This document shows, piece by piece, positions 17,032 through 60,261 of a stretch of 64,000 nt of DNA. The DNA comes from Prevotella bivia DSM 20514 (GTDB lineage Bacteria > Bacteroidota > Bacteroidia > Bacteroidales > Bacteroidaceae). The notes under the pieces were generated by a model. The model saw only the letters and a program-made list of their open reading frames with translations, did not search any database and was not told where the DNA came from. Numbering within the stretch: the first letter of the stretch is position 1; each line of letters begins with the position of its first letter. A program made the position numbers and the translations under genes. The stretch is from positions 315,240-379,239 of the forward strand of contig NZ_JH660659.1 in assembly GCF_000262545.1 (NCBI RefSeq), written 5' to 3'.

Positions 17032-17246
17032 TATCTTTGCAGAAGATAGGCTGCACTCGGCAATATTCAAGCAAGCTTGTATTGCGCTCGCTGGCACTAT
17101 CTTTGCAGAAGATAGGCTGCACTCGACAATATTCAAGCAAGCTTGTATTGCGCTCGCTGGCACTATCTTTGCAGAAGATAGGCTGCACTCGGCAATTTGA
17201 AAGTAAACTTTCATTCCACTCATTTGCACTATCTTTGCAAAAGATA
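17032..17246 (+). repeat. Array A of 66-bp promoter-bearing repeats (three units plus a partial)
   Basis: Units at 17032-17097, 17098-17163 and 17164-17229, then a partial at 17230-17246. Each starts TATCTTTGCAGAAGATAGG: a Bacteroidota -7 box (TATCTTTG) inside a TATCTT/AAGATA inverted repeat, then TGCACTCGGCAA. The first two units are nearly identical and the third diverges in its second half. The boxes point to the OPT transporter start at 17308. Arrays B (43664) and C (60178) are the same family. Confidence 0.9.
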
Positions 17247-17307: not shown

Positions 17308-19290
17308 ATGGAAAATCAAGAAAAAACAAACATTGAGTTGCCAGAGAATGCTTTCCGAGAACTCAAAGACGGCGAAGAATATGAGCCGATTATGAAGAAA
17401 GATAGGGTTTACCCTGAAGTAAGCCTATGGTCAGTAACTTGGGGTATCCTTATGGCAGTACTCTTTTCGGCAGCAGCAGCTTACCTAGGCTTAAAAGTAG
17501 GGCAAGTCTTTGAAGCAGCAATCCCTATTGCCATTATCGCTATTGGGGTATCATCAGCTACTAAACGAAAGAATGCACTAGGAGAAAACGTAATTATTCA
17601 GAGTATCGGTGCTTGTTCGGGTGCTGTTGTGGCTGGTGGTATCTTCGTGATGCCTGCCATTTATATGTTAAACCTTGAAGCCGACTTCTTTAAAATATTC
17701 ATAGCTGCTGCGTTGGGTGGAGTGCTAGGCATCTTATTCCTCATTCCTTTTCGCAAATATTTTGTAAAAGATCAGCATGGTAAATACCCTTTCCCAGAAG
17801 CTACTGCTACAACACAGGTACTCGTGAGTGGAGAGAAAGGCGGTAGTCAGGCTAAGCCTTTATTGATAGCTGGCTTAGTGGGTGGCTTGTACGACTTCTG
17901 TGTAGCCACTTTTGGCTGGTGGAATGAGACCATAACAAGCCGTATCGTTGGTTTTGGCGAAACCATAGCTGACAAGGCTAAACTTGTATTCAAGGTAAAT
18001 ACAGGTGCTGCAGTGGTTGGCTTAGGCTATATCATTGGCTTGAAGTATGCTTTCATTATTTTTTGTGGCTCGCTCACCATTTGGTGGCTTGTAGTACCAG
18101 GTATGAACCTTCTTTTCCACGATACTGTGCTTAATCAGTGGGATCCTAGCATTACACAAACCATCGGACAAATGGCTCCAGAAATGATATTCAAGAGCTA
18201 TGCACGTTCTATTGGTATTGGCGGTATTGCTATGAGTGGTATTATAGGTATCATCAAGTCGTGGGGTATCATTAAGAGCGCAGTAGGATTGGCTGCTCGT
18301 GAAATGAAAGGTAAGGGTGCTGGCGATGCAGAAATCATTCGTACACAACGCGATATTTCTTTTAAAATCATTGCGTTTGGTAGTATTGGTACCCTACTTA
18401 TCACTTTCGTTTTCTTCTACTTTGGTGTGATGAACTTCAACTTACTACATGCAGTTGTAGCTATCCTCCTTGTTACTGTTATTGCTTTCTTATTTACTAC
18501 TGTAGCTGCTAACGCCATTGCTATTGTAGGATCGAACCCAGTTTCAGGCATGACACTAATGACACTAATCCTTGCCTCTGTGGTAATGGTAGCCGTAGGA
18601 TTAAAGGGTAATGCTGGTATGTTGGCAGCTCTTTTAATGGGTGGTGTCGTTTGTACAGCATTGTCTATGGCGGGATCGTTTATTACCGATCTCAAAATTG
18701 GTTATTGGCTAGGTACTACTCCAAAGAAGCAAGAAACATGGAAGTTTCTCGGCACTATTATTTCGGCAGCTACAGTGGCAGGCGTAATGATGGTTTTGGA
18801 CAAAACTTACGGCTTTAACTCTGGCAAACTTGCTGCACCACAAGCCAATGCTATGGCGGCAGTTATTAAGCCTTTAATGAGTGGTCAAGGTGCGCCATGG
18901 ATACTTTATGGCATCGGAGCAGTGATCGCTTTCGTATTAGATCGCTGTAAGATACCAGCCCTCGCTTTCGCTTTGGGTATGTTTATCCCATTAGAATTAA
19001 ATGTACCACTACTTATTGGTGGAACGCTTCATTGGTTTGTTACCTCTCGTACTAAGAATGAAGCTGTAAATACTGCACGTGGTGAAAAGGGTACGCTCAT
19101 TGCGTCAGGCTTTATTGCAGGAGGTGCATTAATGGGAGTAGTATCTGCCCTACTCAAATTTGGAGGAATAGAGTTCGATTATGAAAACTGGTGGACTAAC
19201 CATTTATCAGAGCTTTGCTCTATTGTTGCTTATGTAACCCTTCTTAGCTATTTCGTTATCGCTACAAAAACAGATAAGAAAAAAGCATAA
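17308..19290 (+). CDS. OPT-family oligopeptide transporter
   Basis: A 660-residue inner-membrane protein with about 16 predicted hydrophobic segments. Landmarks include YPEVSLWSVTWGILMAVLFS with AAAYLGLKVGQ at the N-terminus and KYPFPEATATTQVLVSGEKG, typical of the OPT superfamily. Members import oligopeptides or metal chelates, driven by protons. It is preceded by array A of promoter repeats, stands alone and ends at a strong terminator. Ligand unknown; peptide import fits the other peptide genes in the window. Confidence 0.92.
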   Translation: MENQEKTNIELPENAFRELKDGEEYEPIMKKDRVYPEVSLWSVTWGILMAVLFSAAAAYLGLKVGQVFEAAIPIAIIAIGVSSATKRKNALGENVIIQSIGACSGAVVAGGIFVMPAIYMLNLEADFFKIFIAAALGGVLGILFLIPFRKYFVKDQHGKYPFPEATATTQVLVSGEKGGSQAKPLLIAGLVGGLYDFCVATFGWWNETITSRIVGFGETIADKAKLVFKVNTGAAVVGLGYIIGLKYAFIIFCGSLTIWWLVVPGMNLLFHDTVLNQWDPSITQTIGQMAPEMIFKSYARSIGIGGIAMSGIIGIIKSWGIIKSAVGLAAREMKGKGAGDAEIIRTQRDISFKIIAFGSIGTLLITFVFFYFGVMNFNLLHAVVAILLVTVIAFLFTTVAANAIAIVGSNPVSGMTLMTLILASVVMVAVGLKGNAGMLAALLMGGVVCTALSMAGSFITDLKIGYWLGTTPKKQETWKFLGTIISAATVAGVMMVLDKTYGFNSGKLAAPQANAMAAVIKPLMSGQGAPWILYGIGAVIAFVLDRCKIPALAFALGMFIPLELNVPLLIGGTLHWFVTSRTKNEAVNTARGEKGTLIASGFIAGGALMGVVSALLKFGGIEFDYENWWTNHLSELCSIVAYVTLLSYFVIATKTDKKKA

Positions 19291-43085: not shown

Positions 43086-43640
43086 TTATTCAAAGCTATA
43101 AGCCTCGGCAAGGCTCAAGCCTTTGGTAAGATCTTTTTCCGAAAGCACTACATCTTTAGGATCAATAGGCCAATCAATACCTATCGTTTCATCGTTCCAA
43201 CGCACACTAGCCTCGCTCTGTGGCGCATAAATATTATCAACCTTATAGGTAAAAATGGCTTCATCCGACAAAACGAGGAAGCCATGAGCAAAGCCACGTG
43301 GAATAAAAAATTGGCGTTTATTCTCATCAGATAGCTCTACAGCAACATATTTTCCATAGGTAAGCGATGATCGACGAAGGTCAACAGCAACATCAATTAC
43401 TTTGCCCTTGATGACACGTACAAGCTTAGCTTGTGAGAACTCACCTTGCTGATAATGCAAACCGCGGAGTACTCCATAGCTAGACTTCGACTCGTTATCT
43501 TGGATAAACTCAACGTGGTAACCCACATTTCTATCAAACTCATCCTGTCTGAACGACTCGAAGAAATAACCTCTATCATCTTTAAAAATCTTTGGTTCAA
43601 TCACCCAAACACCTTTAATAGTACTTTCTTTAAATTCCAT
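43086..43640 (-). CDS. rfbC: dTDP-4-dehydrorhamnose 3,5-epimerase
   Basis: Third enzyme of dTDP-L-rhamnose synthesis. The 184-residue cupin-fold protein shows RGLHYQ (catalytic His), VAVDLRRSS (DLR), FIPRGFAHGFLVLSD and VRWNDETIGIDWP with the catalytic Tyr in TYKVDNIYAP. Length normal. rfbA, rfbB and rfbD are not adjacent, so the pathway genes are split. It is preceded on its own strand by array B of 66-bp promoter repeats. Confidence 0.96.
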   Translation of the reverse strand: MEFKESTIKGVWVIEPKIFKDDRGYFFESFRQDEFDRNVGYHVEFIQDNESKSSYGVLRGLHYQQGEFSQAKLVRVIKGKVIDVAVDLRRSSLTYGKYVAVELSDENKRQFFIPRGFAHGFLVLSDEAIFTYKVDNIYAPQSEASVRWNDETIGIDWPIDPKDVVLSEKDLTKGLSLAEAYSFE

Positions 43641-43663: not shown

Positions 43664-43874
43664 CTCTACAGAGATAGCGCAAACGAGAGCAAAGGAAGCT
43701 TGCTTACTATTTGCCGAGTGCAGCCTATCTTCTACAAAGATAGCGCAAACGAGAGCAAAGAAAGCTTGCTTACTATTTGCCGAGTGCAGCCTATCTTCTA
43801 CAAAGATAGCGCAAACGAGAGCAAAGGAAGCTTGCTTACTATTTGCCGAGTGCAGCCTATCTTCTACAAAGATA
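43664..43874 (-). repeat. Array B of 66-bp promoter-bearing repeats
   Basis: On the minus strand units run 43874-43809, 43808-43743 and 43742-43677, then a partial with TATCTCTGTAG at 43676. Each begins TATCTTTGTAGAAGATAGG and carries TGCACTCGGCAA, like array A, but with an internally homogenised AGTAAGCAAGCTT region. The -7 boxes face rfbC (start 43640). A long frame through it (multiples of 22 codons) is an artefact of the 66-bp period. Confidence 0.9.
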
Positions 43875-59686: not shown

Positions 59687-60127
59687 TTAGATTTCTAAAG
59701 TTAACCGCTTATAAGCCAAAAGATATTTATTAAGCCTTTCAAAATCACGCTCCTTTAATGGATGGCTTAGCCGAGTTATATCCATATTGTCTTGTAAATC
59801 TGCAATTTTTACTTCCTTACCTATTACATTTTTACTAGCACGGGTTATGAAATCATCGTACGTTTCTCCTTCTTGTCGAGTAACAGATAAAACACCATCT
59901 GTAATTTCCTTAGAAAAGCCTTGTTCTTCTAAGTAAGATAAAGTTACTTCCGTATCCTCTAACGTGTCATGCAAAAGAGCTACAATCTTAGCAGCATTAG
60001 TCTTGCACCTCGCAGCTACTCTGCGTGGGTGAGAAATATAATCAGCACCCGCCTTATCTTTTTGCCCTGCATGAAATCGTTCTGCTATAGCATCTGCCTT
60101 TTTTATTAGTCGTGCGTAATCATCCAT
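59687..60127 (-). CDS. HD-domain hydrolase, small-alarmone-hydrolase-like (MESH1/SpoT type)
   Basis: A 146-residue single-domain protein with SpoT/MESH1 hydrolase landmarks: ADYISHPRRVA (H33), LLHDTLEDT (H53, D54, E57, D58) and KIADLQDN (K107-N114). These are the metal-binding residues of (p)ppGpp 3'-pyrophosphohydrolases. No synthetase, TGS or ACT domain is present. It pairs with DUF262 downstream and carries array C upstream on its strand. Confidence 0.82.
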   Translation of the reverse strand: MDDYARLIKKADAIAERFHAGQKDKAGADYISHPRRVAARCKTNAAKIVALLHDTLEDTEVTLSYLEEQGFSKEITDGVLSVTRQEGETYDDFITRASKNVIGKEVKIADLQDNMDITRLSHPLKERDFERLNKYLLAYKRLTLEI

Positions 60128-60177: not shown

Positions 60178-60261
60178 CCTATCGTTGCAAAGATAGTGCA
60201 AATGAATGCAATACAAACTTGTTTGAATATTGCTGAATGCAGCCTATCTTATGCAAAGATA
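60178..60261 (-). repeat. Array C of 66-bp promoter-bearing repeats
   Basis: One full unit on the minus strand (60261-60196: TATCTTTGCATAAGATAGG...TGCACTCG-like block) and a second start TATCTTTGCAACGATAGG (60195-60178). TTTG stands 18 nt before the second box. The boxes face the HD gene starting at 60127. The rest of 60262-60399 holds nothing else I can name. Confidence 0.85.

What the first reader, a model, noticed from the sequence alone, without database searches (positions are those of the whole stretch)
17032..17246. 66-bp repeats that carry a promoter box and always face the next gene
Three arrays (17032 plus, 43664 minus, 60178 minus) share the unit TATCTTTG...AAGATAGG...TGCACTCGG. 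Each unit has a Bacteroidota -7 box within an inverted repeat, has exactly 66 bp period, and points to OPT, rfbC and the HD gene respectively. Copy number differs (3, 3, 1 plus partials) and units within an array are homogenised. This suggests a moving or expanding promoter cassette that could set expression by repeat number.
Basis: partly seen in the sequence, partly recalled or inferred. Interest (0 to 1): 0.72.

Follow-up and report, generated by a model that had tools for sequence, protein, structure and literature searches.

The report
Palindromic repeats inserted at transcription starts
A Prevotella-group bacterium carries a family of 66-letter palindromic DNA repeats that have repeatedly inserted, always in the same direction, where transcription of ordinary genes starts and then multiplied in tandem; each repeat carries a copy of a promoter box but is probably not the promoter.

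Summary
The genome holds about 60 units in 32 credible arrays; 29 of 31 with a readable flank face a start codon within 200 nt (chance about 0.28 each). The unit is a 66-nt imperfect palindrome with compensating changes in its arms. Orthologous promoters in three related species have one TAnnTTTG box and no unit (1 of 67 loci has one), so arrays are lineage-specific insertions flush behind the native -7 box, at the expected transcription start. The first box is the native promoter; the unit's own box lies in non-promoter-like context and in several arrays departs from TAnnTTTG while the opposite arm changes to match. Arm mismatches show no G-U preference, so the fold looks like a DNA feature. 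Target boxes already matched the unit's end (CTTTG[CT]A). Related units of species-specific length occur in 16 of 17 congeners and a minority of other Bacteroidales, including in front of tRNA-Arg genes. I read this as an orientation-locked palindromic element that invades -7 boxes and expands in tandem; how it inserts is inferred. I found no description of it.

The parts
17032..17039 (+). native -7 box (TATCTTTG) of the OPT gene, in front of array 1
   Evidence: Aligns with the only box in orthologous promoters of related species.
17040..17239 (+). array 1: three 66-bp palindromic units, ending with box 17230-17237
   Evidence: Covariance-model hits C2:332271-332478; sequence.
17308..19290 (+). 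OPT-family transporter gene downstream of array 1
   Evidence: PF03169, E 5.7e-61.
43867..43874 (-). native -7 box in front of array 2
   Evidence: First box on the minus strand.
43667..43866 (-). array 2: three 66-bp units; last box is a degraded TATCTCTG at 43669-43676
   Evidence: Covariance-model hits C2:358906-359113; sequence.
43086..43640 (-). rfbC (dTDP-4-dehydrorhamnose 3,5-epimerase)
   Evidence: PF00908, E 2.4e-71.
60254..60261 (-). native -7 box in front of array 3
   Evidence: First box on the minus strand.
60186..60253 (-). array 3: one 66-bp unit, last box 60188-60195
   Evidence: Covariance-model hit C2:375425-375500; sequence.
59687..60127 (-). HD-domain protein gene downstream of array 3
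   Evidence: PF13328, E 1.9e-5, 24.9 bits against a cut-off of 27.2.

Best explanation
The repeat is a non-coding, imperfectly palindromic 66-bp element (AAGATAG-GCTGCACTCGG-hairpin-CGCTCGTTTGCA-CTATCTTTGCA). It inserts immediately behind the -7 box of sigma-ABfr-type promoters, at the transcription start, in one orientation. Its right arm ends in a -7-like box that matches the target box (CTTTG[CT]A), so insertion leaves the native promoter intact upstream, rebuilds a box next to the gene and creates a new target in register; this allows head-to-tail arrays of exact period. Transcription most likely still starts at the native first box, so the array becomes a transcribed 5' leader of n x 66 nt. 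Shown: anatomy, lineage-specific insertion, orientation, position, arm covariation, target preference. Inferred: the native box is the active promoter; spread is guided by homology between the element's box and the target box (template switching or recombination helped by the hairpin) rather than by a transposase encoded with the repeats; the effect on expression is modest.
For: 66 model hits in 37 arrays, 32 of them credible. 29 of 31 face a gene start within 200 nt, against 0.28 for random intergenic placement. Empty sites: single box and no unit in OPT orthologs of five relatives; 1 unit-bearing locus of 67 ortholog loci in three relatives. First-box flanks are homologous to relatives' promoters (p 5e-5 against mismatched genes), last-box flanks are not (p 2e-6 for the difference). 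MutY shows a flush insertion at the box. Covariation: 98% of cells paired, 37 double changes against 11 in shuffles. Mismatches G-T 12 and A-C 11, so no RNA wobble signature. Target preference: C at box position 4 in 31 of 31 array boxes and 44 of 56 empty orthologous promoters, against 9 of 28 other promoters. TAnnTTTG occupies -12 to -5 in Flavobacterium (PMC9723704), which puts the left arm at about +1. No Y1 transposase in five unit-bearing congeners.
Against: 21 of 29 last boxes still fit TAnnTTTG, so unit boxes could be active. The promoter matrix reflects mainly AT-rich context. One site (L319 against L320) shows duplication of about 20 bp of native leader, as a transposase would leave. 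One strong unit faces no gene. There are no transcription data.
Confidence: 0.55

Rival explanations
1. Promoter cassette: each unit carries an active promoter and tandem copies add promoter activity.
For: 21 of 29 last boxes are TAnnTTTG; 41% of aligned units have TTG 18 nt before the box; always faces the gene.
Against: Unit context scores -4.1 against +6.9 for native boxes; AT content 59% against 75%. Arms drift off the consensus with compensation. Native boxes are better preserved: TAnnTTT in 30 of 30 first against 24 of 29 last boxes, p 0.02.
Confidence: 0.15
2. MITE moved in trans by an unidentified transposase that duplicates about 20 bp of target (a 46-47-nt core plus duplicated box and leader).
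For: G016 Gfo/Idh-type gene: native leader AGAAAAGAAAC stands on both sides of the core. Direct repeats of 16-20 bp at several loci (ftsE, ruvB, L313, L358).
Against: Most arrays have only 10-14 bp of flanking repeat, explained by the box itself; overall permutation p 0.07. MutY has none beyond the box. No autonomous copy was seen in the loci read.
Confidence: 0.22
3. REP-like element mobilised by a RAYT or IS200/IS605-type Y1 transposase through single-stranded DNA.
For: Imperfect hairpin, DNA-level covariation, fixed orientation to a short target, head-to-tail arrays.
Against: Y1_Tnp absent from G003, G005, G008, G011 and G016, which carry units. G000's two copies are an ordinary IS605 (tnpA plus tnpB) with unrelated ends. 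No GTAG tag.
Confidence: 0.05
4. Structured leader RNA (riboswitch or mRNA-stability hairpin) selected for regulation of these genes.
For: Covarying hairpin at the expected 5' end of the transcript.
Against: No wobble preference, and C-G to T-A covariation across a 2-nt loop that RNA cannot close. No Rfam match for the unit. Unrelated genes, absent from orthologs, and found in front of tRNA-Arg genes.
Confidence: 0.07
5. Operator for a regulator: the dyads define a regulon.
For: DNA-level dyad overlapping -7 and the start; conserved GCACTCGG and CTCGTTTGCA.
Against: Gene set is mixed housekeeping and not shared between species; the central palindrome varies freely.
Confidence: 0.08

Closest known systems
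Correia elements (Neisseria MITE)
   Same: Short non-coding inverted-repeat element often just upstream of genes; one copy is inserted immediately downstream of the mtrCDE promoter (review PMC10969869).
   Different: Correia is a longer element (204 bp as first described) that carries its own strong promoters and can invert. Ours is 66 bp, one orientation only, tandem in exact register, fixed to the -7 box.
BrickBuilt (Porphyromonas gingivalis MITE with 23-nt minisatellite)
   Same: Bacteroidales, intergenic, contains tandem repeats, promoter claims (PMC4596501).
   Different: Long MITE with leader and tail and bidirectional promoters, reported only in P. gingivalis; different repeat length; no fixed place at the -7 box.
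REP/RAYT palindromes (GTAG and CGTC families)
   Same: Short palindromic DNA repeats in many intergenic copies, possible single-stranded hairpin substrate (PMC3733652).
   Different: No GTAG tag; Y1 enzyme missing in several carriers; located at transcription starts, tandem head-to-tail.

Membership tests
MITE (Correia-like) | terminal inverted repeats shared with an autonomous element | tested here: inconclusive
   Arms are inverted repeats, but no autonomous element with these ends was seen; the whole genome was not searched for one.
MITE (Correia-like) | target-site duplication | tested here: inconclusive
   Clear native duplication at one site; not general (p 0.07).
MITE (Correia-like) | lineage-specific insertion with empty sites in relatives | tested here: met
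REP/RAYT | associated tyrosine (Y1) transposase | tested here: not met
   No PF01797 in five unit-bearing congeners; G000 copies are IS605 with unrelated ends.
REP/RAYT | GTAG or CGTC tag at one end | tested here: not met
   Unit alignment shows neither tag at an end.
sigma-ABfr promoter (per unit) | TAnnTTTG -7 box | tested here: met
   21 of 29 last boxes; lost with compensation in several arrays.
sigma-ABfr promoter (per unit) | AT-rich spacer and promoter-like upstream context | tested here: not met
   Matrix score and AT content.
sigma-ABfr promoter (per unit) | transcription start inside the unit | not testable with these tools
   Needs 5'-end RNA-seq.
Known structured RNA (Rfam) | match to a curated family | tested here: not met
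   No match to the unit at E up to 1.

The most novel reading that the evidence does not exclude
The element homes to active core promoters: its box is copied into, or recombined with, melted -7 boxes, so the transcription bubble itself is the insertion target, and a whole order of bacteria carries independently evolving lineages of such start-site-homing palindromes without a dedicated transposase.
Probability: 0.25. Interest if true: 0.82.

Novelty: new variant of a known kind. Interest (0 to 1): 0.58.

Why it matters
It would be a short repeat whose landing site is the core promoter itself. The insertion preserves the native promoter, rebuilds a box and sets a fixed orientation and register. 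That gives a simple way for a non-coding element to spread through important promoters without killing genes, and it adds copy-variable leaders to housekeeping genes across Prevotella and some other Bacteroidales. It also warns that TAnnTTTG hits in these genomes include repeat-borne boxes that need not be promoters.

Tried and rejected
Rfam scan of nine array loci: one weak unrelated hit. Y1/RAYT link: rejected. A general ~20-bp target-site duplication looked compelling at G016/G095 sites but was not significant over 49 arrays. A mini-palindrome TATCTTTGnAnAAGATA as a pre-existing target: rejected, since nearly all exact copies in the genome lie in arrays. A -33 TTTG within units: TTG at 18 nt in 41% of aligned units, but native promoters here show hardly any -33 signal either, so not informative. 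Literature by sequence and by words gave no description of this repeat. Strain-level copy number could not be compared: no second strain was available.

Full report
Observation. The three arrays are present as described. The window lies on a 0.4-Mb contig of a 2.52-Mb Prevotella-type genome; Prevotella jejuni is the closest named relative found by phosphoglycerate mutase. Array 1 (17032-17239, +) has three units, array 2 (43667-43874, -) three, array 3 (60186-60261, -) one. They precede OPT, rfbC and an HD-domain gene.

Genome-wide census. A covariance model (R1) from 29 units finds 66 hits in 37 arrays. Inspection leaves 32 credible arrays with about 60 units, and five weak or degenerate hits. 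Of 31 strong arrays with a readable flank, 29 face an ATG within 200 nt; random intergenic placement and strand would give 0.28 each (where 29 of 30 was tested). The exceptions: C3:1878376 lies 416 nt upstream with another array in between, and C3:1667484 faces no gene; a further array, C2:4951, ends in an assembly gap. The genes are a mixed set: phosphoglycerate mutase, murG, ruvB, mutY, nth, folP, aroA, topoisomerase, SIR2 and others. These names are my reading of the N-termini, except the three tested.

Anatomy. The unit is a long imperfect palindrome: AAGATAG pairs with CTATCTT (the box), GGC with GC(A)C, GCAAT with ATTGC, and a central dyad such as CAAGC-AA-GCTTG. GCTGCACTCGG and CGCTCGTTTGCAC are conserved. 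98% of cells pair, with 37 double changes against 11.1 expected in shuffles; sliding the partner by one to three columns destroys the signal. Two points argue for DNA rather than RNA pairing. One pair covaries C-G to T-A across a two-base loop. Mismatches of the G-T and A-C kinds are equally common, 12 and 11, whereas selection on RNA would favour G-U. The counts are small and units are related, so this is suggestive only.

Empty sites. The OPT promoter in five relatives has a TATCTTTG box and no unit. A concatenated-protein search retrieved orthologs of most array genes in three relatives. Of 67 fetched ortholog loci only one has a unit: the phosphoglycerate mutase of G003, with one unit where G000 has four and G016, G095 and P. 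jejuni none. The 30 nt upstream of G000's first boxes resemble the relatives' promoter flanks more than other promoters do (p 5e-5) and more than the flanks of the last boxes do (p 2e-6). At mutY the insertion is flush: TTTTTAACTACCTTTGCTTCATG in G003 against TTTTTAACTACCTTT-[unit]-CACTAACTTTGTTCCTATG in G000. So the first box is native, the last box comes with the unit, and the state with units is derived.

Which box is the promoter? In Flavobacterium the TAnnTTTG box occupies -12 to -5 (PMC9723704), and in Bacteroides the spacer upstream is AT-rich (PMC7366714). The unit's left arm therefore begins at about +1 of the native promoter. A matrix trained on 49 relatives' promoters scores native first boxes +6.9, unit boxes -4.1 and coding controls -9.2. 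First boxes keep TAnnTTT in 30 of 30, last boxes in 24 of 29 (p 0.02). In the array at C3:863178 and in G007, G011, G014 and G015 the unit box has left the consensus while the opposite arm changed with it; in most of these the native box stayed TAnnTTTG. I conclude that the palindrome, not a promoter, is the conserved property, although many unit boxes could still work.

Target choice. All 31 first boxes have C at position 4 and [CT]A after the box. Empty orthologous promoters, which show no unit, also have C at position 4 in 44 of 56 cases (about 19 of 23 genes), against 9 of 28 other promoters in the window. Boxes that already matched the unit's own end, CTTTG[CT]A, were the ones invaded. 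This favours homology- or sequence-guided insertion.

How it spreads. Two sister genomes, G016 and G095, give base-level junctions. At ftsE the sites differ by exactly one 67-bp period flanked by a 20-bp direct repeat, so gain and loss are both possible, and G000 itself carries a box plus left arm without a core there. At one Gfo/Idh-type gene the 20 bp duplicated around the core are native leader, as a transposition would leave. Over 49 arrays, however, flanking repeats beyond the box are not clearly longer than between mismatched arrays (p 0.07). A Y1/RAYT enzyme is absent from five unit-bearing congeners and G000's two copies belong to an ordinary IS605. I commit to copying guided by the box (template switching or recombination, helped by the hairpin), with transposase-driven insertion as the main rival. 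This step is inference.

Breadth. 16 of 17 congeners have matches, with unit lengths from 66 to above 80 that are constant within an array. With a broader model (R2), 17 of 198 Bacteroidales genomes (13 genera) have matches. In 31 of 41 inspected loci a gene or tRNA lies just downstream. Four loci in four genomes precede a tRNA-Arg gene, which fits a promoter-linked place rather than a role in translation.

Comparison with what is known. It works like a MITE or REP-type repeat but passes few membership tests: no autonomous partner seen, no general target duplication, no Y1 enzyme, no GTAG tag. Correia and BrickBuilt elements are the nearest in setting. I found no paper that describes this repeat; the library searched is open-access only.

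Noticed in passing
L012 near C3:604885 (-) and L021 near C3:1840464 (+): A second repeat (GGGTTAAGCGnAACGnAGTGGAG core, ends TTTCTCACCTGAAAGGTGA and GAAAGCACATCCGCA) sits directly behind the last unit in two leaders, each long (ATG at 164-178 nt).
   Followed up: partly
G000 C1:139277 and C2:4951: The nth-type promoter appears twice with the same flank, with 1 unit at the end of contig C1 and at least 3 units before an N gap in C2: assembly duplicate or copy-number variant.
   Followed up: partly
L113, L114 (G000 C2:42744 and 46554): Two copies of an IS605-type element (tnpA plus tnpB); the one read in full interrupts what looks like a phage-type gene.
   Followed up: partly
L075, L083, L305, L316: Four unit-bearing loci in four genomes lie just upstream of tRNA-Arg genes (anticodons CCT, CCT, CCG, CCG).
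   Followed up: partly
L106 (C3:1667484): A good unit in a repeat-dense intergenic stretch without a -7 box in front and without a gene close downstream.
   Followed up: no
L083, L085, L099: In some species the stretch between first box and left arm is a small hairpin, some with a TTCG loop (GACCTTCGGTC, GCCTTCGGC).
   Followed up: no
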